The notes under the pieces were generated by a model, which saw only the letters and a list, made by a program, of their open reading frames with translations, was not told the DNA's origin and searched no databases. The position numbers and the translations under genes are program-made. A stretch of DNA of 64,000 nucleotides from Rhynchonema sp. JSB1_4 (taxonomy: Eukaryota; Nematoda; Chromadorea; Monhysterida; Xyalidae), in NCBI GenBank assembly GCA_030248065.1, contig JASAMV010003771.1, positions 34,060-98,059 on the forward strand, given 5' to 3'. The stretch's first letter is position 1; every line of letters starts with the position of its first letter. Shown piece after piece: positions 1,699-55,400 of the stretch.

Positions 1699-2168
1699 CA
1701 GGGTAGTACTTGGGGGGGGGGGGGGGGGCGCGGGGGGCCCCCCCCCCCCAAATTCACCTATCTATCGTCAACACTTTTTGATTTCATCTATCTATCGTAA
1801 ACACATATGGGCAAATCTATCTATCGTCAACAAATTTTGGGAACAATCTATCTATCGTCAACACATTTCGAACCCAAAATTGACATTTTTGCCTCAAAAT
1901 CGGTATTTTTCACCACAAATAGGCAAAAATCGCGCGCTACGCGCGGATTTAGTACATCTACACACATTTTCATTAATATTTACACGTTATTACCTACTTA
2001 ATGCACTATACTATACCTTGATTTTTGGCGACCCCCCCCACCATCTATCTATCGTCAACAAGTTTGGGTCGACCCCCCCAGATTTCGGACTTGGGTCATC
2101 TACCTATCGTCAACACATTTCGGGTCCCAATCTATCTATCGTCAACACCTTGACCAAGTACTACACTG
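1699..2168. mobile_element. hAT-type MITE A (TATC-word family), nested in element B
   Basis: The ends are CAGGGTAGTACTTGG and CCAAGTACTACACTG, imperfect inverted repeats. The element is flanked by identical 8-bp duplications AGGCAGGG (1691-1698 and 2169-2176), the signature of hAT transposases. There is no transposase, so it must be moved in trans. Subterminal regions repeat the word TCTATCTATCGTCAACA. The centre carries the GC hairpin at 1926-1945. It inserted across the left terminus of element B, so its right target duplication includes the first bases of B. Confidence 0.92.
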
Positions 2169-2551
2169 AGGCAGGGTAGTACTTGGGGGGGGGGGGGTGG
2201 GGGGGTCCCCCCCAAATTAATCTATCTATCGTCAACACTTTTTGATTTCATCTATCTATCGTCAACACTTATGGGCAAATCTATCTATCGTCAACAAATT
2301 CTGGGAACAATCTATCTATCGTCAACACATTTCGACCCCAAAATGGGTATTTTTGCCTCAAAATGGCTCAAAATCGGTATTTTTTGTCCCAAATAGGCAA
2401 AAAATCGCGCGCTACGCGCGGATTTAGTGCATCTTAGTACATTTTCATTAATATTTACACATTATTACCAACTTAGTACACTATACTATACCTTGATTTT
2501 TGGCGACCCCCCCCACCATCTATCTATCGTCAACACATTTCGGGTCCCATC

Positions 2552-3376
2552 CAGAGGTCGCAATCGGGCCGGGTTTGGCCGGCCCGGCCCGGCCCGAGCC
2601 CCCAAATCTCCGGCCCGGCCCGGCCCGGCCCGACCCGTACCCCCAAACCTCCGGCCCGGCCCGGCCCGAACCCCCAAATCTCCGGCCCGGCCCGGCCCGG
2701 CCCGGCCCGATTTTTTGGCTCAGATTTTAACCCAATTTTTGTCATAATTTTTGCGATTTTTTTGAACCTATTTTTTGGTTGAAAACAACGGTGTTGCAGG
2801 GGTTGGGGGTCCCCCCTAGGTACAGTAGGTAGGTAGGTTGACGCTCCATCCTGGTACACTATGTAGGTCGCCGCCCGGCGGCTAGTACAGTAAGTTGCGA
2901 TTTTTGGCTCAAAATGGTATATAAAATCGGTACTTTTCACTCCAAATTGGCGATAAATCGCCGCGCTACGCGCGAAATTAGGGTTTTAGAGCACATTTTC
3001 TTCAAAATTTCGACCGAAAAAATTTTGTTCCCCCTTAGCCCGGCCGGTACAGTAGGTAGGTTGCCGTCCCACATTTTTGGTGGTACTGTAGGTTGCCGCC
3101 CCGCCTGGGTAGCCACACCACTGGTTGAAAATACATTGTTTTCCATGAAATGGTCGTCAGATAGAGACAATACTGATCACTTACTTGCCGAATCCGTCAG
3201 AAATTTTAGTATTTTTGACAAAAAAATCCCTACATTTTCAGTAAAATAAGTCACTTCAGAAGCTTCGGGCCGGGGTGCCCGGCCCGGCCCGGCCCGGCCC
3301 GACCCAAAAGCCCAAAATCGCGGCCCGGCCCGGCCCGGCCCGGCCCGAGGTCGGGCCGGCCCGATTGCGACCTCTG
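2552..3376. mobile_element. hAT-type MITE C1 (CCGGCC-rich family) inside B
   Basis: Ends CAGAGGTCGCAATCGGGCC and its reverse complement form a near-perfect 19-bp inverted repeat. The 8-bp target duplication GTCCCATC is exact at 2544-2551 and 3377-3384. Both subterminal regions are arrays of CCGGCCCGGCCCGA words, about 150 bp on the left and 90 bp on the right, so the ends can pair with each other. Element D1 lies inside. A second copy of this family is at 28514-30351. Confidence 0.92.
2786..3123. mobile_element. hAT-type MITE D1 (GTACAGTAGGTAGGTTGCCG family) inside C1
   Basis: Starts CAACGGTGTTGCAGG and ends GGGTAGCCACACCACTG. The target duplication GTTGAAAA is exact at 2778-2785 and 3124-3131. 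The subterminal word is GGTACAGTAGGTAGGTTGCCG, and the central GC hairpin is at 2955-2974. It is the innermost layer of the 1.7-3.4 kb nest. The related intact copy D3 is at 27747-28163. Confidence 0.9.
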
Positions 3377-3466
3377 GTCCCATCCCAATCTATCTATCGT
3401 CAACACCCTGACCAAGTACTACACTGCATGGAGGGGGAACAGACGTGCCCGAGGGGGACCCCCAGG

Positions 3467-3884
3467 CAGTGTGGTGGCAGGCCAATCGACCCAAGATACC
3501 CTAGGGGGGGATGGTTTCGGAGTTACTCGAGATACCCCCCAGAGGCTACCCAAGATACCCCTATGGTCCGTCAAAAGGCGAAAAAAGGCCGTTTTTTGCA
3601 TGCAATTTTACTGCAAAATTGGCCTAAAAAATGGGTACCTTTTAACATTTTTGCCGAAAATTAGCCTAAAATGACCATTTTTGGGTGTTTGCGCGCGGAG
3701 CGCGCGATTTTAGGGGTTCCGAGGTCGAAAAACACCTATTTTTGCCTTTGCAAAGCATAAATCGACTTACTCGAGATACCCTTTGGGGTCGGCTCGAGAT
3801 AGATACCCTTCCCCCCTAAGGGTTGACTGGAGATAGATACCCCTTAGGGGGGAATCCCCCCATCCCCCCCCAGCCACTACAGTG
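3467..3884. mobile_element. hAT-like MITE F1 (CTCGAGATA family), carries an empty site for element Q
   Basis: Terminal sequences CAGTGTGGTGGCAGG and CCAGCCACTACAGTG are imperfect inverted repeats. Both sides carry ACTCGAGATACCC subterminal words, and the centre has the hairpin at 3691-3707. The flanks agree at only 5 of 8 positions, so the target duplication is eroded or the element is rearranged. The sequence around 3493-3510 is the unoccupied version of the site in which element Q sits at 29263-30299. Confidence 0.7.
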
Positions 3885-3952
3885 CCCCTGCCCACAGGAA
3901 CTACAGTGATGGCGTGGATGAATTTCTAAAGATTTTTCACTCCTCTGTCCTC

Positions 3953-4080
3953 CAGTGTAGTACTTGGTCAGGGTGTTGACGATAGATAGATTGGGTGGGA
4001 CCCGAAATGTGTTGACGATAGATAGATGACCCAAGTCCGAAATCTGGGGGGGGGGGTCGACCCAAACAAGTACTACCCTG
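3953..4080. mobile_element. 128-bp hAT-type MITE, internally deleted A/B family member
   Basis: Ends CAGTGTAGTACTTGG and CAAGTACTACCCTG. The target duplication CTGTCCTC is exact at 3945-3952 and 4081-4088. It holds little more than the two ends with GTTGACGATAGATAGA words and a G-tract, and it lacks the central hairpin of the longer family members. Confidence 0.9.
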
Positions 4081-4197
4081 CTGTCCTCTCTCTTTGGAAT
4101 TAGACGGTTGCACAAGAGGAGTTAAAAATCTTTGGAAAATCATCCACGCCTATAAAAGGCAGAAACGGCGTTTTGAGGCCAGCCGCTTCAGATTACG

Positions 4198-4306
4198 TTT
4201 AAGCCCAAGCCCAAGAAGCCTAGGTGTAGGCCTAAGCCTAAGCCTAAGCCTAGGCCTAAGCCTAAGCCAAAGCCTAAGCCCAAGCCTAAGGCTAAGCTCA
4301 AGAAAA
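4198..4306 (-). repeat. interstitial TTAGGC telomere-like tract
   Basis: About 100 bp are built from AAGCCTAAGCCTAAGCC units and one- or two-base variants, that is degenerate TTAGGC on the minus strand. TTAGGC is the telomere repeat known from nematodes. The tract is internal and degenerate, so it is not a chromosome end here. Confidence 0.75.
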
Positions 4307-4445
4307 CAAACAAAAAATGATGGCTATGTTTTGACATCCCAACCCCGATTTCACTGTTATAAACACTATTTCTCATCATTTTGTGCATGTATAAACTAGT
4401 TTTAACCAAAAAAGCCAAAAAAACAAAAAATTTCACCGGCGCCGG

Positions 4446-4515
4446 CGGGACTCGAACCAGCGGTCCCACAGGCACGAGTCCAACGCTTTCACCGCTGAGC
4501 TAGCGAACCGACACA
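4446..4515 (-). ncRNA. tRNA-derived sequence (tRNA pseudogene or SINE head)
   Basis: On the minus strand an A-box-like TAGCTCAGCGG (4492-4502) and a perfect B box GGTTCGAGTCC (4448-4458) have tRNA-like spacing, with TTGGACTCGTG, resembling a tRNA-Thr(CGT) anticodon arm, between them. The anticodon and acceptor stems do not pair properly when folded by eye, and a T-run follows downstream. This favours a tRNA-derived retroelement head or decayed tRNA over a working tRNA gene. Confidence 0.55.
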
Positions 4516-4812
4516 CACTGCCGTCTAGCCGCTGCTACTTATATCTAGCGCTGCTGCTGTCTAATACACACACGTGTATTAATTAATGCACACACAGCCA
4601 GCTGCGTGTAACGGTTAAACCTGATGATCAAGGGCACCTGGATGATTTTCCAAAGATTTTTATCTCCTAATCGGTTGCACGAATTAGACAAGTCGATTCT
4701 TTTTCATTGATTTTTTCAACAAAGCGGAGGAGTTAGTCAACCAAACGAAAGTGAGGGCACGGTTGATGGAAGACTGCTTACTATTGTAATCACTGCACCC
4801 TGCAGAGGCTCT

Positions 4813-5194
4813 GGCGGGAAGACTGATTATGAATTTGAAAATAAAACGGATTAAACGGAATCCGCATAATCAGCATTCCCCCCAGGGCCGTTTCCCAGGA
4901 AGACTGATTACGAGTGCTATGCATGCCACGCATGTATTCAGCCTAAGCCCAAGCCTAAGTTTAAGCCTGGGTCAAGGCCCAAGCCTAAATATGTGCGCTA
5001 ACGTGAGCCTAAGCCTAAGCCTAAGCCTGAACTCAAACCTAAGCCCAAGCCTTGGTTCAGGACTAAGCTACAGCTGGATTCCGTTTAATCCGTTTTATTT
5101 TCCAGTCCATAAGCAGTCTTCCCCCCAGCACGCAAAAATCCGTTTAATCCGGAAAATCCGTTTAATCCGTTTTATTTATAATCAGTCTTCCCGG
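4813..5194. mobile_element. inverted-repeat element carrying TTAGGC-like tract
   Basis: The outer ends GGGAAGACTGATTAT (4818) and ATAATCAGTCTTCCC (5180s) are inverted repeats. They are followed inward by AAAACGGATTAAACGGA and its complement. The interior (4943-5060) is again degenerate GCCTAA units. The flanking 8-mers do not match well, so the transposon class is not assigned. Confidence 0.6.
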
Positions 5195-6071
5195 CACGGC
5201 GGGCGCATGTATAACCCATGCAAGCTCAGCAACACCAAACACTCCTCACCGTCACCACCGTGGGAATTCAAAGGACCTGAGACGACAAAAGATCTTCAGA
5301 CTTTTTTTTTATTTCTGAGCTCCATCAGCATAGGTTTGCTACAAAGGAGGGATCACAGCATACAGTAATCCAAATGACTGACAATTTAGTGCTCAGCGAT
5401 TTCTCCTAAGTTACCCTAGAGTCCAAAGGACTTATCACCGTCAGCAACAGAATCGCAGTCAATCTCAGGAAGACATGGCTATGGCTCTATTTAAGTGCGC
5501 TCCTGTCGCTCCACATTCAAATTGCTTTGAAGCTTCGGTTCGGGCCACGAAGGGTCCGGTGCGGCAGGCAACCATGTTTGCGCGGCGAGGCGGTCACTGT
5601 TTGCTGCGATTTTTCTCAGAGTTATCTGTTGTTCGGCTGCGTGGGAGGCTGTTGTTCTATTTTTTGTAGTTTGTAGGCCATCGGTTTTGTGAAGTCACGT
5701 CCGCCAATGGAGCGCTTGTGCTCTTGTTGTTGAGTCAAGACATAATAATTTTTCTTGGTTTGCTGTTGTTTTGAAAGTGGAATGGTCAAATCCGGATCAG
5801 TTTGGGATTGCGTATGGTGATGCTGACTAGTGAAAGCAAATAAAGTTGGCAAAATCAAGAGTTTTTCGTCAGTGCAAAACCAGAATCCATCTTCAGACTT
5901 CAGACGTGATTTCAGACTTTTTTACACATACGTGCAGCATACACAACAGAAGTTCTGTAAAAATTCACGCCGTTTGCTTCTATTGAACAGGACATTTTGC
6001 ATAAACCATCAACTGAGACTTTTGATCCTCAAAAATCCTCTTATCCCTTTACAATCATCACGACCACAACG
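5195..6071. other. intergenic, no supported gene
   Basis: No conserved coding segment, RNA or well-bounded repeat was recognised here. It probably contains the promoter and 5' untranslated region of the membrane-protein gene beginning at 6072. Confidence 0.5.
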
Positions 6072-7431
6072 ATGGGTTTTCTGTCGCCAATTTTGATGTT
6101 GCTGTTGGTGATTATTGAAAGTTGGTAACTATAATTCCAGTTTTAGTCTCCCGGCAGCGATCAACAAAGACTAATGTTTTTCCATCTTTCAGTGTCCATG
6201 GCAGCAAGTGGCACTGTTTCGTGCACGGGCAGTCTGAACATCGTCGTTTGGGCTGTGGTGTTCACCATTGAGGTTGGCACCACTGAGTCAACCCCGCTCA
6301 GGCCTTTGCTTGGGACTGAAATAAATCAAGGCGCAAACCTACATACATGTCAGGTCTAACAGGCTTCACAGTTAATGTAACAGGTGATGTTTCAGATCGT
6401 GACGATCATCTGCGCGCCAATGCTGTGGATTTTCTGGAAAAACGCACGCGCGGATCGTAAACGCACCGAAAGGATTAGGCAAATGGCACAAAAGGACGAC
6501 GTGAAATCGGAAGTTGGTGATGTGATTTTAAATGATGTTTCGCTCAGTTGTCAATCAATACAGTATGTGTGCAGTATTGATATTGATAACCCGGTAGGCA
6601 TTGGATCAATGTGAACTGTGCAGCGTACTTTTTTGATGGCTCGTTTCGACCTGCTTTCACAGGCTCCCGGTGCACCACTAGGTCATCCTCAGTAGAATTC
6701 GTCAGATAGGGACGTAGACTACAAGCACACAAAAAATACACAAGTTAGTGTTTGCGTTGAAAATGGATGGAAACATTTTTTGAGAAAAAATAGCGATATT
6801 TTGCGCGGGCATAATCCCATAGGCTTGGTTGGATGCGGTCACTTGGGCACCTGGCATGCATTCTCCGTGATGTTCACCTGGCACAACGTCCAAAAGAATG
6901 CTCTTCTGGTTCTTTACAGTCGAAGAGCCGTTCCCATTCCCACAGCCACAACCGCAAGTCACGATTCGGTTTCAAAAAGAGTCAAAGGGCTGGAGGATTG
7001 AATGAAGTGGAACCGTCTGATCTGGGTTAGTATGAAGATCTGAAATAACTCAACTGGTGTAATTTTCGAAACGCTGTTTCACGATCACACTAACTTTACA
7101 CCGATCACCGACCGAGCGTGCACCGACATTCACACCCAACGAGTTTGGCGTTAATTTAATTATTGCCCAATTATTTTCCAGTTGCCGGTACCGTGAGTGC
7201 ACCAGGGCGTCGTGAATCAGAGTCTCAAACAGGTTGGTTCACTCGCAGTTGTGACAGATTCAGAACGTTTTGTCACTTGGCTCTGTGGCTGTTTTTAATC
7301 GTATTTTTTCAGGGGGTACAGCAGCAAAGGGCGACTCCGCGAACAGCCCCAAACCAAGTTCGAACTACATGGGTGGTGATCAACAACAGGTGGCAAAAGA
7401 GTCTCATTACATTCCGATGCTGCACTCCTAG
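6072..7431 (+). CDS. predicted small type I membrane protein, unknown family
   Basis: No family was recognised. A seven-exon model (6072-6124, 6193-6259, 6384-6516, 6663-6691, 6920-7025, 7182-7232, 7313-7431) gives 185 codons with consistent GT-AG junctions and one open frame. It starts with MGFLSPILMLLLVII, a signal-peptide-like segment. A short cysteine-containing stretch follows (WHCFVHGQSEHRRLGCG). The membrane segment is VMFQIVTIICAPMLWIFW, followed by a basic stop-transfer KNARADRKR. The tail is rich in Ser, Arg and His (SKSRSHSHSHNRKSR) and ends IPMLHS. The short ectodomain vaguely resembles nematode ET or Ly6-like cysteine patterns, but this is not established. The junction between exons 2 and 3 is the least certain part; an extra micro-exon is possible. 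Confidence 0.45.
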
Positions 7432-7703
7432 GATGAAACATTATGAAACACAGTTGTGACGACCTGGTGCTGATTCAAATGCTCATCTGCCAAAGTTTTC
7501 GATTTCGTGAATGCCTTTCGTTTCAATTTTAAGTTGTGTTGCGGATTTGAGCTTCACGTAGTTATGCCTATTTTTGATCTGCTGTCCAGGTTTGAGATTC
7601 AGAAGTATCAAATGACTTAAAAACAGATGTCTTGAGAATAGCTCTCTCGTGTAAGATTTCTGCTCATATGAGCTCATTTATTCGTCAAGATTAGGAAGTG
7701 AAA

Positions 7704-8034
7704 TATAGTCCGTCCACCAGCTCATGGCACTTTGTGTTGCTGCTGGCTGGTTTGGTCCCTTCCTCCACGTTCTAATGAAAGAGAAATTGAATGTGAGCGA
7801 TTTTGCAAAAAACTTAAAAAAATAATAAAATGTGTCGAAAACGATTGAATTCGATCAAATTTAAAATTAAATTAAATTAAAATCTATAAAACACGTCGAT
7901 TTCATAAAGACAGCAATTTAGGAGCAAAAATATTTTTTTTCGGAAACTCAATTTCTCTTTCATAAGAACGTGGAGGAATGGAACAAGTCGGCCAGCAGCA
8001 ACACAAAGTGCCATGAGCTGGTGGAAGGACTATA
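7704..8034. mobile_element. 331-bp foldback MITE (TATAGTCC family), copy 1
   Basis: The two ends are long inverted repeats starting TATAGTCCGTCCACCAGCTC, with the arms extending through the GAACGTGGAGGAAGG and CAATTTCTCTTTC words. The AT-rich centre gives an almost complete hairpin. It has no coding capacity. The second copy lies inside the hAT element at 35038-35370, and a diverged relative is at 14125-14411. Confidence 0.85.
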
Positions 8035-8102
8035 CATGCCAATACCATACCATGTTGCTTTTGCTCAGAGAAAAAGGTTCCAGATCATGTACCGCAGAGA
8101 AC

Positions 8103-8483
8103 CAGTGCTCAAACGAGATTGTTTATCGGGATCGGGATCGGGATTACAGTAGTTGGCACCATAAGTAACCTTGCTGATTATTTTTCATTTTGGACCTCGC
8201 AGTCGGGCTACAAATCATCCTCAGCAAAAACGACGCCAAAATGTGCAAAAGGATGCAAAAGTGCCCATTTTTCTTTCACATTTTTGTTGTCCTACTCAGT
8301 TTTATGTATATCATACAAAAGCGATATCAATACGACTCTCACTTTCAGCAGCTCTGTAAGCCCGATAAAAATCCCGATGAGAATCCCGAATCGCGATCCG
8401 GAGAATTAATCGGGATCGGGCTTTCGGGATTTTATCGGGATTGAAAGTCTCCAGATCGGGATTGGGATCCCGTTCGAGCACTG
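8103..8483. mobile_element. hAT-type MITE with ATCGGG words
   Basis: Ends CAGTGCTCAAACGAG and CCCGTTCGAGCACTG are imperfect inverted repeats. The target duplication CAGAGAAC is exact at 8095-8102 and 8484-8491. Both sides carry GGGATCGGGATCGGGAT-type words in opposite orientation. It inserted 68 bp from the foldback element at 7704-8034. Confidence 0.92.
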
Positions 8484-8767
8484 CAGAGAACAAACTATGT
8501 ACAGAGTTCATTTGACCGATAACTGAGATTTGTTTTTCGTCACGTGATCAGAATATTGCTGCCCTCGACTGGTTCAAGTGAAATGATGTTGGAGAGGAGA
8601 TGTTACCACTTGTGCTTTGTGGTATGAGTTGGGAATGCTACACTTAATTAATACCTATTCAACAATACGCTTTCGAATTGTGACTCTATCATTGCACCCT
8701 TGCCCAAGCCACCGACGGACTTGTCGAGTTTGTGGGAGATATGGGCTTACTCTTATGTAGTTAGGGC

Positions 8768-9025
8768 GCGGCCATGCAAACGCGGGCGCGGGTCGCGGGT
8801 CAGAAAAATATTCTATGTTTTAGACCCGCTCCGCGTTTGCATGGCCGCACTTGCGGGCGCGGGTCGCGGGCCAGAAAAATATTCTATGTCCCAGACCCGC
8901 GCCCGCGTTTGCATGGCCGCACCTGCGGGCGCGGGTCGCGGGTCAGAAAAATATTCTATGTCCCAGACCCGCGCCCGCGTTTGCATGGCCGCACTTGCGG
9001 GCGCGGGTCGCGGGTCACTCGAAAC
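8768..9025. repeat. minisatellite, about 74-bp unit, 3.5 copies
   Basis: Each unit contains CGCGGGTCGCGGGTCAGAAA, AATATTCTATGT and CCCAGACCCGCGCCCGC followed by GTTTGCATGGCCGCAC. Units are nearly identical and partly self-complementary, with GCGGGTC against GACCCGC. Open frames across it on both strands are repeat artefacts. A diverged half-unit recurs near 9150-9200. Confidence 0.85.
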
Positions 9026-9060
9026 ATTTCTTTGGCTGGGCTTGTAGCGCGCGAAAACCA

Positions 9061-10162: not shown

Positions 10163-10546
10163 CAGTGTAGTTCTTGGGGGGAGGGGGTCCCCTCCTAAGG
10201 TACACTAACCGCCGCGACCAAGGTACACTAGTGCACTAACCGCCGCACCAGGTACACTAACCGCCGCAATTTTTGCCTAAAATAGGCATTTTTAGCCCAT
10301 GATGGGCATTTTAGGCCTAAAATGGGTAATTTTCAGGTCAATGTTGTCAAAAGTCGCCAATATACTCTATTTATGGAGAATTTTTTCCAAAAAAGGGCAA
10401 AAATAGGTCAAATTTTTTACCTCAAAGAAGGACTTTTTCCTGAATTTTGGTCTTCCCCTCCTTCCCCCCACAGGGAGGTGCACTAATCGCCGCACCGACA
10501 AAGTGGGTAGGTTCACTAACCGCCTCGCCGGACCAGGAACTACACT
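10163..10546. mobile_element. hAT-like MITE (ACACTAACCGCCGC family)
   Basis: Ends CAGTGTAGTTCTTGG and CCAGGAACTACACTG are inverted repeats identical in design to the element at 38545-39363. The subterminal word is GTACACTAACCGCCGC. The interior has GCCTAAAATGGGTAATTTT and similar AT words. The flanking 8-mers differ, so the duplication is eroded. Confidence 0.75.
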
Positions 10547-26076: not shown

Positions 26077-27481
26077 CAGTGTAGTTCCTGGGGGAGGGGG
26101 TCCCCCCAAAGGTACACTAACCGCCGCGACCAAGGTACACTAACCGCCGTGCCAGCAGTGATGTGGTTGGGGGGGGGGGGTATTACCCCCAACTGTTAGG
26201 TAGCTTTCTTGCTCCGAAACCCATACCCCCCAAACTGGCTAGCTGGCTTTCTTGCTCCGGTCACCAAGTAAGAAAAGTGTTGATTTTAGTGCCAAAATGA
26301 CTATTTTATGGGCCAAAATGGTCAAATTCGTTCAAATTTTCTCACACGTGCACAAACAGGCATTTACATTACAGCAGCATAAGAGTTCGAACACTTTTGG
26401 CCGCCACTGTATGGGCAAATCTATCTATTGTCAACAAATTCTGGGAACAATCTATCTATCGTCAACACATTTCGACCCCGAAATGGGTATTTTTGCCTCA
26501 AAATGGCTCAAAATCGGTATTTTTTGTCCCAAATAGGCAAAAAATCGCGCGTTAGTACATCTAAGTGCATTTTCATTAATATTTACACATTATTACCTAC
26601 TTAGTACACTATACTATACCTTAATTTTTGGCGACCCCCCCCACCATCTATCTATCGTCAACAAGTTTGGGTCGACCCCCCCCCCCAGATTTCGGACTTG
26701 GGTCATCTATCTCTCGTCAACAGTGTAGTTCCTGGTCCGGAGGGGGAGATAGCGGACCCCCCGTTTTTTCAGAGGGGGAGATAGTGTACCCCCGAGGGGG
26801 GGAAGGGGGGGAGGGGGGGGGAGGAAGACCAAATTCGGGAAAAAGTCACTTTTTGAGGTCGAAAATTTGACCTATTTTTGCCCCTTTTTGGAAAAAAATC
26901 TTCATAAAAAGGGTATTTTGGCGACTTTTGAGAACATTGACCTGAAAATCACACATTTTAGGCCTAAAAATGCCCATTTTAGGCCTAAAAATGGCCATTT
27001 TAGGCAAAAATTGGGGGAGATAGTGTACCCAGAGGGGGAGATAGGGGATGGTGTACCACCCGAGGGGGAGATAGCCTACCCGAGGGGGGACCCCCTCCCC
27101 CCCAGGAACTACACTGCTCGTCAACACATTTCGGGTCCCAATCTATCTATCGTCAACACCCTGACCAAGTACTACATTGGGGGGAAGACCCAAATCCAGG
27201 AAAAAGTCACTTTTTGAGGTTGAAAATTTGACCGCTTTTTGCCCCTTTTTGGAAAAAATTCTCCATAAAAAGGGTATTTTGGCAACTTTTGACATCATTG
27301 ACCTAAAAATCACCCATTTTATGCCTAAAAATGCCCATTTTAGGCCTAAAAATGCCGATTTTAGGCAAAAATTGAGGCGGTTAGTGTACCTGGCGCGGCG
27401 GTTAGTGTACTAGTGCACCTTGGTCGCGGCGGTTAGTGTACCTTCGGGGGGGGGGGGCCCTCCACCCCAGGAACTACACTG
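26077..27481. mobile_element. composite of hAT-like MITEs (outer ACACTAACCGCCG family)
   Basis: The outer termini are CAGTGTAGTTCCTGG and CCAGGAACTACACTG with GGTACACTAACCGCCG words at both ends, as in the elements at 10163 and 38545. The interior contains a truncated A/B-family element (TCTATCTATCGTCAACA words, 26415-27179) and the intact insertion at 26721-27116. The outer flanks do not match, so internal rearrangement has occurred. Confidence 0.6.
26721..27116. mobile_element. hAT-type MITE (GGGGGAGATAG family) inserted in an A/B element
   Basis: Ends CAGTGTAGTTCCTGG and CCCAGGAACTACACTG. The target duplication CTCGTCAA is exact at 26713-26720 and 27117-27124. The subterminal word is GAGGGGGAGATAGTGTACCC. 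The target falls inside a TCTATCTCTCGTCAACA word of the older A/B-family element. Confidence 0.92.
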
Positions 27482-27652: not shown

Positions 27653-28210
27653 CCACCGTATTGTCGGAAATAGAACCCGGGGGTCTATTTTTTCACTGGG
27701 GTCATTTTGGGGGGTTCAATTTATGGGGGGGGTCAATTATTGGGGGCAATGGTGTAGCTGGGGGGGGGGGGAGTGGGGGGGTCCCCCCCTAGGTACAGTA
27801 GGTAGGTTGCCGCCGCCCCTCACCTGGTACAGTAGGTAGGTTGCCGCCCCTCCCCTGGTACAGTAGGTAGGTTGCCGCCCCACCTAACTTTTCACCCAAA
27901 ACATTCATTTTTGGCTTAAAATTGCATAAAATTAGCATATTTGTCTGCAAATAGGCGAAAATCGCGCGCTGCGCGCGAAATTAGTGTTTTAGGCCACATT
28001 TTCTTCAGTATTTAGACATAAAAAATTTCGGTTTCCAGATGACCCCCCCCAAAGTGGTACGACCCCCCCCCTAGCTCGGCTGGTACAGTAGGTAGGTTGC
28101 CTGCCGCCCCGCATTTTGGGTGGTACAGTAGGTTGCCGCCCCGCCTGGGTAGCTACACCACTGATTGGGGGGGGTTATATTTTTCATTTGGCCCCCCGAC
28201 GAAAAACAAA
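27653..28210. mobile_element. partial element of the Q family, host of MITE D3
   Basis: It starts CCGTATTGTCGGAAATAGAACCC and continues with TTCACTGGGGTCATTTTGGGG words and TATATTTTTCATTTGGCCCCC. The same order occurs at 29263-29390. It is interrupted by D3. The right terminus of the Q family is not present. Confidence 0.65.
27747..28163. mobile_element. hAT-type MITE D3, with matching empty site at 29349
   Basis: Ends CAATGGTGTAGCTGG and GGTAGCTACACCACTG. The target duplication ATTGGGGG is exact at 27739-27746 and 28164-28171. The GGTACAGTAGGTAGGTTGCCG word is repeated at both ends and the central hairpin is at 27961-27977. The uninterrupted paralogue of the host at 29340-29385 reads straight through the target, confirming the boundaries. 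Confidence 0.95.
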
Positions 28211-28513: not shown

Positions 28514-29262
28514 CAGAGGTCGCGATCGGGCCGGGTTTGGCCGGCCCGGCCCGGCCCGAGCCCCCAAATCTCCGGCCCGGCCCGACCCGTACCCCCAAAT
28601 CTCCGGCCCGGCCCGGCCCGAACCCCCAAATCTCCGGCCCGGCCCGGCCCGAATTTTTGGCTCAGATTTTAACCCAATTTTTGTCATAATTTTTGCGATT
28701 TTTGAATCAATGTTTTTGTTGAAATTTCATTGTTTTCCATGAAAAAGTCGCCAGATAGACAATACCAATGGTGTGGCTGGGGGGTCCCCCCTAGGTACAG
28801 TAGGTAGATGACGCGCCATCCTGGTACAGTAGTAGGTAGGTCGCCGCCCCCCGGCTCACTGTAGTGGCTGGGGGGGGATTGGGGGGGATTCCCCCCCCTA
28901 AGGTGTATCTATCTCGAGTCAACCCTTAGGGGGGGGATGGGGGGGGAAGGGTATCTATCTCGAGCCGACCCCAAATGGTATCTCGAGTAAGTAGATTTAT
29001 GGTTTTCAAAGGCAAAAATAGGTGTTTTTCGACCTCGGGACCCCCAAAAATCGCGCGCTCCGCGCGCAGACACCCAAAAATGGTCATTTTAGGCCAATTT
29101 TCGGCAAAAATGTCAAAAAATACCCATTTTTAGGCCAATTTTGCAGTAAAATTGCATGCAAAAAACGGCCTTTTTTCGCCTTTTGACGGACCATAGGGGT
29201 ATCTTGGGTAGCCTCTGGGGGGTATCTCGAGTAAGTCCGAAACCTTCCCCCCCCCTAGGGTA

Positions 29263-30299
29263 CCGTATTGTCGGAAATAGAACCCGGGGGGTCTATTTTT
29301 TCACTGGGGTCATTTTGGGGGGGTTCAATTTATGGGGGGGGTCAATTATTGGGGGGGTTATATTTTTCATTTGGCCCCCCAACGAAAAAAATCATTGTTA
29401 ATAATGCCCCTAAAAATGGCTTGTTTTCGGTATTTTCTAACTTTAACACCTGCAATTATGCTTAAAAAGCTGTGTTCTGTTGTGTATATGGGTGGGCACA
29501 ATACCCAATACCCAATACCAATACCACCCAATACCAATACCAATACCAGTGTTTGGTATTGGTATTGGGTCTAATTCTGGTATTGGGTATTGGGTATTGG
29601 TATTGAAGCTGGCCTGGTATTGGTATTGGGTATTGGGTTTGCCCAGGTATTGGGTCAAAACCAATACCCAATACTGACCCAGAAAAACCCAATACCAAAC
29701 CAATACCAAACCCAATACCTGACTCAAAACCCAATACCAAACCAATACCAAACCCAATACCAACCCAATACCAGACCAAAAACCCAATACCAGACCAATA
29801 CTAAGACCAATACCCAATACCCAATACCAATACCAACCCAATACCCAATACTCAATACCAATACCGACCCAATACCAAACCCAATACCAGGCACAGGCAC
29901 TTCAGTAGTATTGATTTGGTATTGGGTATTGGTATTGGTATTGGGTCTCGCCCGGTATTGGTATTGGGTATTGGTATTGGGTCCTCAATTCGGTATTGGT
30001 ATTGGGTATTGGGTATTGGTACAGGGCCGGTATTGGTATTGGGTATTGGTATTGGGTGTCAAAAGTGGTATTGTGCCCAGGCCTAGTTGTGTACGCAAGT
30101 TTAAACAACGTTTGACACAACAACACAGCCTTATCATACCACTAATCTGTGGTACGGTGAAGGTTGGGGGTGGGGTTCTATTAATGGGGGGGGGGGTCAA
30201 TTAATGGGGGGGTTCTATTTGTGATTTCGAGCCATTTAGGGGGGTTCAATTAATGGGGGGTGGTCAATTAATGGGGGGGTTCTATTTCCGACAATACGG
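29263..30299. mobile_element. TA-flanked element Q carrying a CCAATA/TATTGG minisatellite
   Basis: The termini CCGTATTGTCGGAAATAGAAC and their reverse complement are perfect over more than 20 bp. The element is flanked by TA (29261-29262 and 30300-30301), as for Tc1/mariner-type or similar transposases. The interior has TCAATTAATGGGGGG words and the minisatellite listed separately. Comparison with F1 shows the site before insertion. Confidence 0.88.
29495..30060. repeat. CCAATACC / GGTATTGG minisatellite with strand switches
   Basis: About 560 bp are built almost only of CCAATACCCAATACCAATA units or their complement. The orientation switches several times (about 29555, 29660, 29915), so segments can pair as long hairpins. 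Open frames in all phases (IGIGYWVLVLG type) are products of the repeat, not genes. Confidence 0.9.
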
Positions 30300-30422
30300 T
30301 ATCTTGGGTCGATTGGCCTGCCACCACACTGCCCGATTGCGGCGACCTCTGAACGGAACGGATACGGAATCCAACTGACGCGAAACTGCCGTATCCTAAT
30401 TGTGTTGAGGTCACGTTCAGGC

Positions 30423-32406: not shown

Positions 32407-33140
32407 TAGTCGGTATTCAAATGCAATGATCCGAATTTTATTTCCCCAATTTTGATCACTGAATTTGGACTTCTAATACTTTGAAATTCATCCTGTTTCT
32501 GTGTGCGGCTATCAAGGAGTCATGCTTCTGATGACTGGTCCCGACCCAACATGATAGTCGGAATTAGACTGTCAAGCACTAAAGGGGACCGAAACAGTCT
32601 GTTTCCCATCCTAAATTTTGTGCATCATCTTCAGTGTAATACTTCGACCATTCTACCGAAACGTCAATAAAAACGCGCTCTTCTACTGCCACGGACAGTG
32701 ACAACAAAGGAACCGACTCCACAAATCATCGCTTTCAGTCGACTAAAAAGGTTCGCAAGATTTATCGCCATATAATTAGGCTTGGGCTTAGGCTCCAGTC
32801 ATTAAGGCCTGTCCATAAAATTCAAAGGGTTCAACTTTAGACTTCGAGGTCACTTTGGGGTTCTAACCCGCCCTGCATCCAGGGTTGGGCTAAAAAAAAG
32901 TAAAAAATTTTTATAAAAAAAGTTTTTTTTGTTCAAAAAAGTTCGCCACTTTTTCGGTTTTTAAAAATTAGAAAAGTAAGTTCACTTTTTTATTATTTCA
33001 CAACTTTTTTTTATTATTTTCCCCCTTTTTTGCTGTGAAATGTTTTTTTTGCTTGTTGTTTCTTAAAAATCGCCTGCGGCGCTTGTATTTCGCATCGGTT
33101 CAATGTCATTACAACGTTAGACAGTCCGTGGGTCTACTAA

Positions 33141-34590: not shown

Positions 34591-37500
34591 CTATGTTTCG
34601 AAATATGTTTCGTCAGTCACACCCAAATGTTGCAAATCTGTTCGCAAAGCGTTCAACGTCTTTTCGTAATCTGGTCGTTGATAGTGCGTCGTTTGCAACA
34701 GTGTGTTGTAGATCGTGTCCAACGCGGGACGATGGTGCACCTGAATTGACTATGGTCACGGTCAGGGTTGTTTCAAAAAAAGTGGTTAATTAAAAAAATT
34801 TAAAAAAAAATTTTTTTTTTTGAAACTCAGATTTTGCTTTTTTTTAATAAAAAAAAGTTGCCCAAAATGGGCTGAAATGTCCAAAAATGGCCTTTTTCGA
34901 GGCAAAAAATTAGCACTTTTTTTCTGTGGACGGGACAATTTTTCCAAAATCGCGCCGCTGCGGCGCCCTGTATTGTCCCCAAATCCGTACAGGGATGCGC
35001 GGGGATGGTCTTTTATAGTGATGTGGCACCGATAATGTATAGTCCGTCCATCAGCTCATGTCACTTTGTGATGCTGCTGGCCAACTTGTTCCCTTCCTCC
35101 ACGTTCTAATGAAAGAGAAATTGAGTTTCCGAAAAAAAAATATTTTTGCTCCTAGATTGTGGTTTTTATGAAATCGACGTGTTTTATCGATTTTAATTTA
35201 ACTTAATTTTAGATTTGATCGAATTCAATCTTTTTCGACACATGTTGTTATTTTTCCTGTTTTTTTTGCAAAATCGGTCACACTCAATTTCTCTTTCATT
35301 AGAACGTGGAGGAAGGGAACAAACCAGCCAGCAGCAACACAAAGTGCCATGAGCTGGTGGACGGACTATACTACTGCATGCTACTACACATGTATATACA
35401 TAGGTCTGGTGCAAAACCGGGCGCGCAAAGTCGATCCCACACGCAAGATTTGGGCTGTAATCGATATTTTGATGGTCGTATATCAGATACACGGCATTAG
35501 ATGCATTAAAATACGTTGTACGGCATGCTACAATACATTAGAGTAACATCGTTAGTCAACATCAACCTCAGACTGGTAGGATTCCATAGAATCTGCACAA
35601 TACTACCGGGTGTTACCACACAAGTTGGGTCTCAGGCGAAATTTTTTCAATTTTTGAAAAATATGTTGCATCGATTTCATTCATCCTGAAACGTCGTTTG
35701 CAACACTTTTTTCTAATAAAAAAAATTTTCGTCAAAAAAAAAATCAAAAAAAAATTTTTTAAAAAAAAGCTCGTTAATAAAAAAATTTTTTTTCAACCCT
35801 GGTCACGGTATGTGACGGTGACATCCGTAATGTCACATGATGAGCGTAATAACACGAAGGAAGATTGGTGTTCTGACCGACAAGACCATACCTAGCCTCG
35901 GCACTGACGATGTCTTGTCGAGATTGAGACCTAGGAAAACATTTCGACCAGGCGCAAAGGTTGCATAAACGAGCTGTCTGAAAACGACTTTTACGCAGGT
36001 CAAAATTACTGGCAGCAACCCTCTGGTCTTCAGTACAAAAAGGCAAAAGTGACTTGTCCGGATTTTATCCAATCCTACCAGATGGCTAATAGTTTGTTGT
36101 CGGACGGTAGTGTGGTAATCTCAGGTCCAATAATTGCCACACTCACCAAATATGGCATTGTGTCTCGTTTGACGGGTTCTATTTGTTTTATGTCGCTCAA
36201 ATGCGACCAGGGCAACACATTCGTGTGTTCGATCATCACGTATAACGCTGACCACACGTCATCACGTCGTGAAACATCAACCAACGCGTGCGCAGACAGG
36301 GACGCCCAACGTGGCGCGCCGTGGAAGCCAACCTGGAAAATGCTTCCGTAGTTCAATACACTGCATTTGTATCGTTTTTGTATCTATATTAGCCCATCGT
36401 CCATTGGATGTGCTTTTGCTTGAGACCTACACGTTTCCACCGGTGGGTTGAACTTACTCGATCGCGTTTGGGCACATGCGTGCCATCAGGCCGTAAGAAC
36501 GGTGCCGACAGACCAAAATCGATCAGATACAGATGGAGTTTGCCTGAATCATCAAGGATCGTGGCTCATATCATTGGCTCACACAATGAAAGGTCCAACC
36601 TTGCTCGAACAGGAGTGGATGCAGCACAAAATTGGCAGGCTTAATGTCACGATGTAGCCAGCCGAGCTCGTGCACACTGCGAATGGCCGACAACTCCTGA
36701 AAAAACACCACAATTTTGATACAAAAAATTTGCGAAATTATAAAATTTTTCTTAAATTACCTGAATAGCCAATCGATAGGCAGTTGCGCGCGAGAACACG
36801 CCGTGTTCAGTGCTTCGTTGCAGTTGCTCCAGGTCTGGTCCGGCACGTGGCATCACAACGTAGGCGATTCGACTTAGAAGGACATTATTTCTTCAACAAG
36901 TTATTCCAAAATGATATTTCACAGAAGTGAACCAACCGCAAAGTCGACTGCACGATTCCATCAGCGAGCAGTGGCAGCACGTGTTTGGCTTGTTGTTGAT
37001 TCAAATGGTATAGTGTTTCCTTTTTATGCAAGTCAAAGGAAACAAGCTACCCCACGTTATAACTCAACTCCAGTTTGGGGTCGAGATTTCAGAAACCAAT
37101 GAAAGAGATTAAGAATGTGTCCTTGTTAATCCAAGCACGACACTCAGCAGCAAACATGGTGAAATGTTTCATTGACATGCTGGCAGCACACACGCACAAA
37201 GCTCACAGCGAGCATGTGAAACATTGTTGTTGTTAGATTCCACAGGCAAACTTTGACACGTTTTTGCCAGCTGCTTGATTGAATCGAAATTGTAATCTCG
37301 ACCTCAACTAGAAGTTCAGTTATAACATGGGCCCGCGCGTTTCCTTGGACCAATAAAAACAGGAAACACTATACAATGCGGCAGCTTCGATGGGCAATGT
37401 TTGTAGATCGGGGGCCGGATCACTGACTTCTGTTTTGATGATCACTTCTTGGTCCTGCAGCAAATCATATCTGACTGGCTGGCTGATGTTTCATGAGAGC

Positions 37501-38294: not shown

Positions 38295-45282
<6,988 letters not shown>

Positions 45283-46320: not shown

Positions 46321-46455
46321 TTAGCACTGCGCCAACGAAAAAGAGGCTTCACATTATTTTTCCGAAATTTTCGTGTCCATTTTATGCTGTTCGCGCCGCT
46401 TTGGCTGCCAGTGCTGTTGACCAAATCTCGAAATAACAACGACCAGATCACAAAT

Positions 46456-49400: not shown

Positions 49401-52400
49401 GTTCCGTTCACTCAACTGTTGTCCTTGTCGGAGTGTTCATTCTTGATTGAGTGTGTTTTGCCCGAATATTGACTACGCAGTTTGTGATATCATAAGTTTG
49501 GTGTGGATGCAGGTCCAGAGCCAACAAAACAACCTGTTTGTTCACTTTGAAGGTTGGAAAGAAGTATTCCTTATCATACACAGATATGTAATTCCGTTCC
49601 GCTTGCCATGGGTTAACTTTGGTGTTCAGTCGGTGAGTCACCAGCCAGGTCAGCAATCAGTCAAATTCTCTGACGGCATGCACAAAACAAGCGGTGCACT
49701 TTTACTTTTATGAGGCTGATTATGCACGCCTTTTCTGTATGTGTACACGCCCGTGCGCACGTAATTTCTGGGTGTTATGATTGCGGGCAGATATGATACG
49801 GTTTGACTGGCTGGCCAAGTTTGTCTGACCTTGATCATTTGCCGATACTTTCGCGTGGTGCAACAGCTTTGTATACCTATGTATGCTCGTATAGTTGCCA
49901 AGACCAACCACCCACCCACCGTTCCTGTGATATATTATATAATGTAATCACATTACCGTTTGGCAGCCCAATACGTGATCTTTTCGTTTACTCTTTATTC
50001 TATGTGTTTCTTGCTGCCGTAACAAACCTTCAAAAACTGCTGCTGTTCAAAAAAAACCTTCATGGGTACATGTACAGTAGGTTAACCACCTGGTTGGTTT
50101 AACATCAACATTATTGCTTGTTTCTTATGCTCGTTTATGGCGGTAAAGAAAGACGGGCATTTCAAGTTAGGTACAATTATCGAGGCATTTTGACTTCAAT
50201 ACGAACCCATGTCCAGTCGAGCTGCATAGTGCTCATCCTTGTAGATGGTGCACACACAGTCACATAATTGATTAGTGTAAGCTCTTGTAAAATGCAGAAG
50301 TTTCCACAGTTTTGATACTTCTACCTGCGCGCGTTCATAGGTTTTTCTCAGGATGATCAATACGCAAGTGCGGTGGTGTTTGGTACGAAACAGTCATCTG
50401 GCAGAATAAGCGCAGGCAACAGCCACAGGAAGTTTTGAAGTGCTTAGCCTGCGTGGTTATTGTATCATCGGATCTGGTTTTGCCGTTTGGAGTGTTCAGA
50501 GGCAGACTTTCCAATACCCAGATCTAGTATACACGTTTACTGTACGTACCGTACAACTGAAAAGACCGCATCTTGAGTATGTTTGGAATGTTTTGCCTGC
50601 TCATTCTTGCACCTTGACACAGATTCAACCGAAAAAGCCTGAAGCGTTTGGTCGGAAGAAATTTGTGGCTGAATTAATTTTGGCCCAATATACGAACCGT
50701 AGTAATGTCGTTTTTTGGCGATTTTTTCGACTATTTCAAGGTGAGGTGGTCTGATGTGTTGTCTCTGCACTTTCGTTTTCTTCACTAATTGGTCATTTCA
50801 TCTTGTGGACCCTTGTTTTACGGCAACAGCACGCATGCGGCATCACTGCATTTGCTGCACTTTCGTATCTTTACAAGTGCATATCTATCGTGTCGTATCT
50901 TTTTTCTTGGTGCATATTTTCGCACTGTCCTATGTCTTTTGTTTCATTATGACAACGCACTGTGGTGGTGTTAGCGTCTTTTTGCTTGCATGTACTGATC
51001 TTTGATCGATAATAATATTGCACGGAGAATAATAGTAATAATATCGGCTGTTGTTTTTGTGAAAACTTGGTTGTGCTGTGCCAATAACACGTGTACTGTG
51101 CACTTCTGTGTAATGCGCAATAACTGTCACGTGTCACCTCTGTTTTAACTTTCAAGTGCTCTTGATGTGTTTTTCTTTGCGTCTGCGGGCTAAATTTGAA
51201 TCGATCTCGTTTGAACTTTAGGCCAAATGAGCTAACCAAAACTTCACTGTGAAACATCAGACCCTTGTTTTTGCCACTAATGGTGGGTCACTGTGCCACT
51301 AAGAATTTTGAATGAGCCACAAGATTTTGGCAAATGAGCCACTAGAATTTCAGGGACCTAGTACTGAAGTAAGAATGAGCCACTAAATTTTTGGCAAATG
51401 AGCCACCAATGGGCCACTGGCCCATTTTGAAAAGACCTGCATCAGACCATAGTTTTTAGACACCTTTTAGGTATAATTGCAATCTAAAGTTTCAGAATTC
51501 TACCCCAAAAATTGAATGCCTAAGTGCAAGTTTCATCTACAGTTTTTGAACACGACCGTGCCCCATATTTGTGCTTATCAGCCGTGTTCTGGCCCTTAAC
51601 GCCTAAAAACTTGCAAAAATTTTGCTGCGCCGCTTGTTCGTATTTTCCCAAGCCCCTGTAAACTACATAAAAGCACGATACTAAGCAGAAACAACGAAAT
51701 TGTGTTTTATTGGCAAAAAAAATTGTGCATGCACCTATAATTTCGTGCTTGCGCATAAAATCAGGGAGCTAGGTACAAGTTGCACCTTCTAAATTTTGAA
51801 AAATTAAGCCCTGCATGCAATCAGATTTGCCTCGTTCTTTCAAACACTGCCTGATGTTTCTCAGGGCAGTTGAAGGCGAAGAAATTCATGCAATGTAAAG
51901 TAATTATTCGTTTTAGCTAATTGTCAGATTGCAGGTGCCCGCGCCAGCTTCTTCAACCACCACGACCAACCTGGTGAACAACGTGCCAATGGCTGACCAT
52001 GCAGTGGGGGCACACAAGTTGACTGACACCGACATTGGCCTGAATGACAACAACAACATCAAATCGATCGATGCCGAATCTGTTGGGGAACCGGAAATAA
52101 ACAGTGAGCTGACTGGCTGATGTTTCATACGAATTTTTGTAGAGTTTAGATTGGACAGCCGTCATTTTTTAGCTGTGACCACCACCAAAAATCCAATTAG
52201 TTCGATGATGGCACCGGAGAAATCTGCGGATGGGCCCGTATCAAAAGAACTGGAACTGGTGGCGAAGGAATTGACTGATAAAGGTTGAAATATATGAGCT
52301 CGAGTTTAGAACATCCGGAAGTGTAAAACTTGACTTCAGATCTGGTTCAAGACAAGAATATTGGTGTCATGAAGGCTGACGAGCCAGTGGTGCCGTTAGT

Positions 52401-55400
52401 ACATGAAGAGGACATGGATGAGGATATAATGGCTTCACCAATCGGTTTGACCAATATTGAGGGTCGAGTGTTCTGTGGTGGATTTGTCTTGAATATTTTC
52501 GTTCTCAAGATTCAGACAATATTCGTCCACCGACACCGACCGAAATTGATGATCGAACCGTGCCGATACCGACACCGATGATGATGCAGGCTGAAATGAA
52601 AGTGCTGGAACCCAGTGAGCATGAAGTTGGACTAAGTTACATACGTTGCTTTACTTGCTTTCTGTTTCTTTACTTCTGAATTATTATTTCTTTCTTTAGA
52701 TGCCCAACATTCTGGTCAGCAGTCCTCCAGCGTCCAATGAAGTGGTGCCGCTGCCACAACCAGATGTGAAAACCATAGATGGAAATAAGAGCGGGTTCGT
52801 TATTATGTTTGCTTTCTTGTCTCGGGGTTTCAATCCAGTCAGTAACATGGATGCCAAAAGAACCACAGTTAGGTCAGTTTAGATACTTCTTGTGTATTCC
52901 AAACTCATATACGAGTTTCGCACAACTGATTGTATCATGTATGTTGCATTTACAGTATGTTTGATGCAAATAACGTCATTGTAAGCAAGCAAGCCTACCC
53001 AATCAATGCTAATGTAGTTGTACTATGAGAATCCGCAAAGTGTGGCAGTGGTGTCGTTGGGGGGGGGGAAGGGGGGGTTACCCCCTAGTATCCGGTATCC
53101 GGTATCTTGACTTTTTCACCCAGGGGTATCCGGTATCCTGACTTTTTGTCCAAGGGTATCCTACCCTAAAAATTTTTCGAAAACCGTAAAAATCGCCCAT
53201 TTTTACCTCCAAAATGCTCAAAATCGCTTGCTAGCGCAAGCATAACCCCCAAAATGACCATTTTTGCGCTTTCAACACCGACTTTGCTCCGTTTTCCTCT
53301 TAAAAATTGACTTTTTGAACAACCCCCCTGGGTATCCGAGAATTTTCATTTTGGGTATCCCGTATCCTGACTTTTTGATTTCCCAACGACACCACTGAAG
53401 TGTGGTGCTCATATGACAGAGAGGGCATAACAATGCAGCTGCTGTCTCTTTGCATTCGTTCATATAAACACGCGGTATCATGCAGCTGCTTGCTTACTCT
53501 CACTGGCTGTATGTATCTGTTGAAAAGATCAGACTACTTGCCATGACGTCTGCCTGTTTCATCCCACCGCTCTTGATCTGTTATGTATAAGTTTTCTGGA
53601 GTGAGTGTCCTCCTGGTTCTTATCTCGTACGATTTTCAGCTCCAACGCACTCACCACATCTTGGGTTATTTGGCATTTTGCAACATTTAGGCGCCACTAA
53701 GCGAGCACCGCACCGGAAACGTAGTTTTTTCATAAGTAGTATTGTTGAGAGCACTTCAAGCATAAATGAATGTCGCTCAAACAGCGTGTACCGAACTTTA
53801 GTGGCATATGTTCTGTTCTCTCCTGAATGCAGGCTTTCTGTCAGTTGACCGGTCCTGCTCAGCATTTAGATGGACAATTTCTGTTTGTTTGTTTCACCTT
53901 CATAGGAACATAACTTGGTATACTGTATGTACGTACATCATTTTCTCTGTTCCTGTTTGCTAAAGTCTACGGGGTGCTGAGAGGGTAGGAACGTAGTAGT
54001 GTTATTATGAGAAATATTATTCTCTTTCGGCTGTTTTTTCACACCCGCGGCCGCGTTATGAACGTGCGTGTGAGGTTTCGTACCAACCGACTGACTTTCT
54101 TCAATATGTATACGTATTGCTACATTAACCTGGTAACGCTGACCTGTTGGGGCGGCAACCAACCAAACTGAGGTTGAGGTATGATATGTACACACCGACA
54201 CGTTTCGACGTGCTTTTTTGTGCGCGTCCGGTGTATAAGTACGTGTTGAAACGTTTGTTCGCCATGTACCAGAAATTGTAGTATCCCGTGTTTTGCAGCA
54301 ATTCCCAGTAATTTGTAACGGTATACGTTATAACTCATATCAAACTAATTATTCACTCATTTTCTCTGCCTTGCGTGAGGCCTGTCCGTGCATTCCCATT
54401 CCAAACTAAACTGGCGCGCATTCAATGTTTCACGATCAAGTGCACTCACGAAAAGGTCGGTCAGTCATCCTGCGCCATGCATTGCCGTAATAAACGCATG
54501 TGACGCGTCGCTTTTATGTGCAATTTGTGGCTCTGTGCCTGTCTGTCTGTGGCTAGGCTTTGTATGTACGGGCAGCTAACAGAACAAGCTGCTGTAGCTT
54601 ACCAGCTTAGAATATAGGGCCGTGGCGGTGCCACCACTAGAGCAGTGTTGCGTTGTTTAGTGATTAGCCATATGCCGCATATAACAGTGCTCTGCTGCAC
54701 CTCAGTTGCTCCCTATCGATTGGCATATTTCGCTGCTCTGGCCCGCTGTTTTTGGTGCTATTTTTTTGACAGACACTTCAATTTTTCTGTTGTCTTTTGG
54801 CTTTGGAAAGACCGAATGCATAAAATACGTCCAGAATGCATCAAAACACGTGTGTGTGGGCGCGACCAAGCCAGCGCAGAAAATGTTTGATGGTTTTTCT
54901 CAGCGTTCATTTATTTTCGTGTGTCCTAGGTGTTTGGTGATGTGTTAGTCATTTCGGTTTTTTCTTATCAATGTTTTGCACGACCAATTTCAGTGAGTCA
55001 GTGAGCCCGCCAGAGTCAGATCGCGGCACCGGCACACCCGACGACGAACTATTCCGCGACGCTGGCAGCGAATTCGATCTTCAGGTGGGAGCTTGGTGAT
55101 AAAATTTCGATTATTTGCTTGAAGTTCAATTTTTGATTATTCTAATTGCAGTCTCAGCCAGCCTCCCTCAACACCACAGCCACCGAGTATTTCCCGACCG
55201 ACAGTCCATCGCCCGATCCCGGATTTGCCGACGACGAGCCGACGTTGTTGGAGAATAATTTCCGCGCCAAAATCAACTCAGCAGAGAGTGTGGGATCGAC
55301 GAATTTAAACGAAAGTGTGCCCCTGACAGACGACAGCAGTTTGGGCGCTTTGAATTTGACCGATCATTCGGACAGTGCTGGACTGACTGATTTGTTGGCC

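What the first reader, a model, noticed from the sequence alone, without database searches (positions are those of the whole stretch)
1926..53240. Different hAT-type MITE families share one central GC hairpin
Elements with different termini and subterminal words carry, near their middle, a self-complementary motif of the form AAAATCGCGCGCTNCGCGCG. Positions: 1926-1945, 2401-2420, 2955-2974, 3691-3707, 27957-27977, 29046-29067, 38785-38806, 34946-34967 and 33065-33082, and in altered but still palindromic form at 40632-40650 and 53221-53240. In most families the flanks are AT-rich with CCNAAAATGG-type words. Retention of the hairpin while ends diverge suggests a selected function such as a replication or nicking structure, a transposition enhancer or a transcription block, or a common ancestral core with exchanged ends. 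I know of no described MITE superfamily defined this way.
Basis: partly seen in the sequence, partly recalled or inferred. Interest (0 to 1): 0.78.

Follow-up and report, generated by a model that had tools for sequence, protein, structure and literature searches.

The report
Mini-transposon clade sharing a hairpin core
Thousands of short parasitic DNA elements in this animal genome belong to several families with different ends but the same small hairpin in the middle; single copies often lose it while most families keep it, hinting that it helps the elements spread.

Summary
AAAATCGCGCGCTNCGCGCG has 4500 exact copies in this 204-Mb genome; the pattern read backwards has none. In the window 6 of 11 listed sites match exactly, 2955 and 53221 are variants, 40632 is a decayed variant, and 33065 (chance level) and 34946 lie in other hAT families. 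The carriers are hAT MITEs; 8-bp duplications were found for most. In eight TIR families the hairpin sits at 47-54% of the length.

They are one clade: TIRs are related and the interior left of the hairpin is alignable across families; the right interior mostly is not across two groups. The core is 84% identical between families, its flanks 55% and 50%. Within families the core mutates as fast as its flanks and is deleted more often. Retention therefore looks like selection among transposing lineages, not passive inheritance.

Against an essential role: family E (3204 exact copies of its site) carries what looks like a collapsed hairpin and thrives. No compensated change was seen among 100 C1 copies; family D has two compensated pairs. 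No autonomous partner was found. Coral CMITEs (piggyBac type) are a precedent for a conserved middle with variable ends.

The parts
1699..2168 (+). Family A MITE (470 bp), TIR CAGGGTAGTACTTGG/CAGTGTAGTACTTGG, TSD AGGCAGGG
   Evidence: exact 8-bp TSD and TIR
1926..1945 (+). Core hairpin of A, loop CTA
   Evidence: exact match; fold -9.5 kcal/mol, z -2.59
2172..3426 (+). Second family A copy, split by element J 2552-3376; TSD not established
   Evidence: ends read; core 2401-2420 exact
2401..2420 (+). Core hairpin of the second A copy
   Evidence: exact match
2552..3376 (.). Host hAT element J (TIR CAGAGGTCGCAA, TSD GTCCCATC) carrying a nested B-type MITE
2786..3123 (+). B-type MITE (338 bp) nested in J, TSD GTTGAAAA
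2955..2974 (+). Core variant AAATCGCCGCGCTACGCGCG, 5-bp arms
3467..3884 (-). Family C3 MITE (418 bp); matching TSD not found
   Evidence: TIRs read
3692..3711 (-). Core hairpin of C3, loop CTC
   Evidence: exact match
26541..26562 (+). Family A copy with hairpin partly deleted (AAAATCGCGCGTTAGTACATC)
26721..27116 (-). Family E MITE (396 bp), TSD CTCGTCAA, no GC core found
27747..28163 (+). Family B MITE (417 bp), TSD ATTGGGGG
27958..27977 (+). Core hairpin of B, loop CTG
   Evidence: exact match; fold -9.6, z -1.22
29047..29066 (+). Core hairpin of a C3 copy that starts at 28857; its right end was not delimited
   Evidence: fold z -3.24
38468..39692 (+). C1 copy (TSD ACCTCGGC) interrupted by E 38545-39363 (TSD GTTGGGGG), itself interrupted by C1 38592-39010; the outer copy has a hairpin deletion at 39478
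38592..39010 (+). Family C1 MITE (419 bp), TSD CACCTACC
38786..38805 (+). Core hairpin of C1, loop CTC
   Evidence: exact match; fold z -5.58
40467..40872 (+). D-like MITE (406 bp), TSD CCGTCCAG, decayed core at 40632 (0.43 of length)
53046..53397 (+). Family D MITE (352 bp), TIR CAGTGGTGTCGTTGG, TSD AAGTGTGG
53221..53240 (+). Core hairpin of D, arms GCTTGC/GCAAGC: two pairs changed on both sides against GCGCGC/GCGCGC
   Evidence: fold -6.2, z -2.98

Best explanation
One diversified clade of hAT MITEs. Each core family has related TIRs (mostly CAGTGnnGTnnC), a G/C hairpin beside the left TIR, its own direct subterminal repeats at both ends, an AT-rich interior, and an inherited GC hairpin at the centre. 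The subterminal words change fast, probably because they follow the DNA-binding specificity of different hAT transposases (inferred; Herves transposase binds subterminal motifs, PMC3143072). The central hairpin is kept by weak selection among the lineages that go on transposing. The mechanism I think most likely is a DNA structure acting in cis: the hairpin or cruciform extrudes in the middle and helps transposition, for example by folding the element so that its ends meet. Shown: relationship, central place, conservation between families, no protection inside families, deletion hotspot. Inferred: selection among master copies, extrusion, and the transposition step (which alone I would put near 0.25).
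For: Core 84% identical between families against 55% left and 50% right flank (25 of 28 pairs, the 3 C-C pairs left out). Left interior alignable across groups, mean z 2.5-2.8 over 16 pairs. Midpoint 0.466-0.544 in eight families. Within families substitutions are 9 of 323 core and 72 of 2259 flank sites, p 0.86; deletions of 5 nt or more in 5 of 24 cores and 0 of 24 flanks, p 0.0496. In C1 22 of 100 listed copies have a shortened core. D keeps pairing with different arms. Loops vary while arms stay. 8-bp TSDs.
Against: Family E lacks the GC hairpin and has 3204 exact copies of its site; a hairpin-less B-type form recurs too (4 of the 161 sites listed read AAAATTTTGAGSG). No compensated change among 100 C1 copies. 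Arms CGCGCG are both self-complementary and direct repeats, so their constancy does not prove pairing. The test rests on 24 copies, the deletion p is borderline, and 3 of its 9 core changes are in G, whose reference is a single copy. No autonomous element was found.
Confidence: 0.55

Rival explanations
1. Passive inheritance: the clade is young and the hairpin is simply an ancestral piece that has not yet diverged.
For: Homologous left interior; very similar A copies, 40 scored matches at 98-100% identity to one 100-nt query (best candidates only).
Against: Flanks between families have diverged to about 50-55% identity while the core stays at 84%, although the core is not slower inside families.
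Confidence: 0.2
2. The hairpin is a polymerase-stalling, template-switching joint. During gap repair after excision it causes slippage deletions and joins left halves to other right halves; it is found in new families because new families are born there, not because it is selected.
For: Deletion hotspot. Right interior unrelated across groups {A,B,F,G} and {C,D} on average (mean z -0.3 to 0.2) while the left is related.
Against: Subterminal words differ at both ends between families, which a single switch does not give. The group pattern has exceptions: right z of B-C3 is 4.1 and B-C2 2.4, while A-F and A-G are 0.2. Slippage between direct repeats also explains the deletions.
Confidence: 0.13
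3. A sequence-level or RNA-level role: Z-DNA, a protein site, a transcription block or a small-RNA precursor.
For: The lead AAAATCG is nearly as constant as the arms. CG runs can adopt Z-DNA (recalled).
Against: D keeps pairing with arms that are not alternating CG. No Rfam family reached its threshold in the window. No expression data at hand.
Confidence: 0.08
4. Replicative amplification through a hairpin intermediate, as was proposed for fish Angel elements (recalled; no paper holding it was read).
For: Stable central hairpin and very high copy number.
Against: TIRs with 8-bp duplications fit ordinary hAT cut-and-paste; hairpin-less E amplified as well.
Confidence: 0.04

Closest known systems
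CMITE of Acropora corals (PMC2872659; outline with abstract, passages and section 15 seen)
   Same: MITE families with different TIRs share an internal region more conserved than the TIRs; a role of the interior in transposition is suggested there
   Different: piggyBac-type with TTAA duplications and about 100 bp long; no hairpin described (0 occurrences of the word)
hAT MITEs in general
   Same: 8-bp duplications, CA-NG termini, subterminal repeats, short, many copies
   Different: A central GC hairpin shared between TIR families; none found in the searches (listings)
Herves, hAT element of Anopheles gambiae (PMC3143072, passages seen)
   Same: Transposase binds a short motif in both subterminal regions, a model for the subterminal words here
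   Different: An intact element; a central hairpin was not mentioned in the passages seen

Membership tests
hAT superfamily (as non-autonomous elements) | 8-bp target site duplication | tested here: met
   Exact for window elements 1699-2168, 27747-28163, 38592-39010, 53046-53397, 40467-40872 and 2786-3123; not found for 3467-3884, not established for 2172-3426
hAT superfamily (as non-autonomous elements) | Short TIR of the form C/T A A/G N G (recalled) | tested here: met
   Required in the search; most ends CAGTG or CAGGG. Some left ends (CATAG, CACTG) depart from it
hAT superfamily (as non-autonomous elements) | Mobilised by a hAT transposase with the same ends | tested here: inconclusive
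   At least 150 PF05699 matches in the genome; the six loci fetched, L077 and L078 belong to other hAT families or showed no ends
MITE | Under about 600 bp, uniform in size, high copy number | tested here: met
   Consensus lengths 360-476 bp; 4500 exact cores
MITE | No transposase coding | not tested
   Implied by length only; element translations were not scanned against Pfam
CMITE | Interior more conserved between families than TIRs | tested here: met
   Core 84% against TIR 66-71%, but the interior beside the core is only 50-55%
CMITE | TTAA duplication, piggyBac termini | tested here: not met
   8-bp duplications and CAGTG-type ends
Helitron | Hairpin close to a CTRR 3' end, no TIR, no TSD (recalled) | tested here: not met
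   Hairpin central; TIRs and TSDs present

The most novel reading that the evidence does not exclude
A hAT MITE clade carries a selected central cruciform that works whichever transposase reads its ends: a portable cis module in the middle of the element, kept while TIRs and subterminal repeats are replaced, and at which left and right halves can be exchanged.
Probability: 0.2. Interest if true: 0.75.

Novelty: new variant of a known kind. Interest (0 to 1): 0.5.

Why it matters
MITEs are usually seen as two ends with filler between. A middle that mutates freely in copies but is conserved between families would mean that the centre of a hAT MITE matters for its spread. The natural hairpin-plus and hairpin-minus forms (intact C1 against its deletion derivatives, and family E) make this directly testable.

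Tried and rejected
Helitron 3' hairpin: rejected, the hairpin is central and elements have TIRs and TSDs. Z-DNA: disfavoured by family D. Chance GC repeats: rejected by 4500 against 0. Sites 33065 and 34946 as members: 33065 is at chance level, 34946 is left open. Known RNA family: none over threshold in the window. The same motif in IMG/VR contigs: none. Autonomous partner through PF05699, PF14291, PF04937 and PF02892: 150, 0, 1 and 32 matches; the loci looked at are other hAT families. The PF14291 search also rang in no control genome, so it shows nothing about absence. Compensation inside families: none in C1; comparable samples for A, B and D were not obtained. The count of structure pairs was not used, because MAFFT set the D arms out of register. 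A fold scan timed out and was repeated with a coarser step. Literature searches; of PMC2997013 only passages were seen. The species was not identified.

Full report
The window is part of a 204-Mb assembly in 5747 contigs. A translated stretch near 43.7 kb matches PDB chain 3dqg_A, 'Heat shock 70 kDa protein F', best (E 5.4e-13 over 32 residues). I recall that entry as Caenorhabditis elegans, so the genome may be a nematode's; the species was not established.

Observation. The motif occurs exactly at six window sites against 0.01 expected for up to three mismatches. A scan for AA[AG]TCG plus a GC hairpin finds 10 sites against a mean of 1.03 in 60 shuffles. It adds 2955 and 53221, and also 34947 (6-bp arms, 0.07 expected) and 33067 (4-bp arms, 0.92 expected). 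40632 lies in a D-like element with a decayed stem. Genome-wide there are 4500 exact copies and none for the pattern read backwards.

Anatomy. TIR pairs with 8-bp repeats were sought in the window and the loci held then (71 sources, 325 kb with overlaps, mostly chosen around exact cores). This gave 122 candidates, of which 74 are innermost and at most 700 bp. Copies used for consensus (under 520 bp): A 9, B 15, C1 9, C2 4, C3 3, D 3, E 18, F 1, H 1, I 2; G was read from one copy. Eight families (A, B, C1, C2, C3, D, F, G) have the core at 0.466-0.544 of a 360-476 bp consensus. H and I have no GC core that I saw. Each core family has its own direct subterminal repeat at both ends, for example ATCTATCTATCGTCAACA in A, GGTACAGTAGGTAGGTTGCC in B, GGGTACCTTGCAACC in C2 and GGTACCCTACCCGCCCCG in G (read by eye). 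In the eight core families and in E a G/C hairpin lies beside the left TIR, and in the consensus sequences the core has the same orientation relative to it.

Relationship. Between families (25 of 28 pairs; the three C-C pairs left out) the core is 84% identical, the 60 bp to its left 55% (mean z 2.0), the 60 bp to its right 50% (mean z 0.1), the left and right TIRs 71% and 66%. With a score-based z at windows of 45, 60 and 80 bp, the left interior is related across the groups {A,B,F,G} and {C,D} (mean z 2.5-2.8, 16 pairs) and the right is not on average (-0.3 to 0.2); within groups the right mean is 1.4-1.9 for A, B, F, G and 2.8-3.1 for C-D. The grouping is not clean: at 60 bp the right z is 4.1 for B-C3 and 2.4 for B-C2, but 0.2 for A-F and A-G.

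Selection test. I took copies found roughly independently of their own core: window, L071-L077, and non-anchor copies in L001-L030, from 161 candidate core sites (some rows misplaced). That gave 34; 10 diverged or truncated ones were dropped. In the other 24, substitutions are 9 of 323 core sites (cores with large deletions left out) and 72 of 2259 flank sites (2.8% and 3.2%, p 0.86); deletions of 5 nt or more hit 5 cores and 0 flanks (p 0.0496). Removing duplicate places may have cost some intact neighbours, so the deletion share may be high. For C1 an anchored pattern gave 481 copies; of the 100 listed I count 60 intact, 22 shortened and 18 with substitutions only. Of these 18, 8 have one arm change, 5 one loop change (arm against loop rate p 0.15) and 5 have more; none of the 5 is a compensated pair, though one (C60) keeps pairing in the CGCGCG register. 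So copies are not protected while families are. Selection on lineages that keep transposing explains this best, on a small sample.

Structure or sequence. CGCGCG is its own reverse complement and a direct repeat, so constant arms do not show pairing by themselves. For structure speak D, with two pairs changed on both sides, loops that vary while arms do not, and stem extensions in A, B and G. As single-stranded DNA eight representative cores fold at -2.4 (decayed D2) to -14.3 kcal/mol; z runs from -0.66 (D2) to -5.58 (C1), and is only -1.22 for B and -1.51 for F.

Against a needed function. E has CAAAARTCGCCAAAATACCC at the homologous place, 3204 exact copies. Among 31 copies in hand with a relaxed form of this site, 21 read CAAAAGTCGCC and 6 CAAAAATCGCC. 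It resembles collapse products of C1 such as AAAAATCGCAAACCC, and E aligns with C on both sides (mean z 2.3-4.0). E is most simply a hairpin-less descendant that spread. A weaker AT-rich stem CCCTTTTT..AAAAAGGGG lies beside the site and may or may not stand in.

Partner. The genome has at least 150 PF05699 matches. Of six fetched loci, five have the match inside an element of 1160-1547 bp with TIR CAGTGTTCGAACGGGAT, and in L074 no pair was found. A BED domain lies in a 900-bp element with TIR TAGGGATCGGCGTCGGT (L077), and the same end is seen downstream of the C1196 match (L078, by eye). None of these has the ends of the present clade.

Comparison. CMITEs of corals are a precedent for a conserved middle with variable TIRs (PMC2872659: outline with abstract, passages, section 15). 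They are piggyBac-type with TTAA duplications, so the present clade works like them without belonging to them. Binding of subterminal motifs is reported for the hAT transposase Herves (PMC3143072, passages). Full-text searches: hAT + MITE + central hairpin, 0 papers; five terms with hairpin and subterminal, 1 paper, on DINE-1 (listing only). Verdict: a new variant of a known kind.

Noticed in passing
left ends of families A, B, C, D, E, F, G; e.g. window 27775-27789 and 38614-38634: A run of G followed by a run of C forms a second strong hairpin just inside the left TIR, at one end only.
   Followed up: partly
L071, L072, L073, L075, L076: hAT elements of 1160-1547 bp (TIR CAGTGTTCGAACGGGAT) whose PF05699 match covers only the dimerisation domain.
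   Followed up: partly
L077:653-1552 and L078: A 900-bp element (TIR TAGGGATCGGCGTCGGT, TSD GTTGTTGT) holds a BED zinc finger; most of the 32 genome matches to BED have the same score and span. The same end lies downstream of a PF05699 match.
   Followed up: partly
window 2552-3376 and 28514-30351; L030, L032, L044, L065: B-type MITEs sit inside J elements (TIR CAGAGGTCGC). The TSD GACAATAC recurs in L030 and precedes the B start at window 28766, which suggests that J and B moved together as composites.
   Followed up: partly
window 38468-39692: Nested insertions: C1 holding E holding C1, each with its own 8-bp duplication.
   Followed up: yes
L012:1831-2235, L023:1225-1639, L061:2064-2512: Three elements have the TSD GGTATTGG, as if inserted into a GGTATTGG minisatellite like that near window 29500-30070.
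   Followed up: no
L007:2243-2257: A J-like element (TIR CAGAGATCGGAA) has its own hairpin TTGCGCTTCGCGCAA, about 215 bp from its left end.
   Followed up: no
window about 42475-44256: Exons of a mitochondrial HSP70-like gene.
   Followed up: partly
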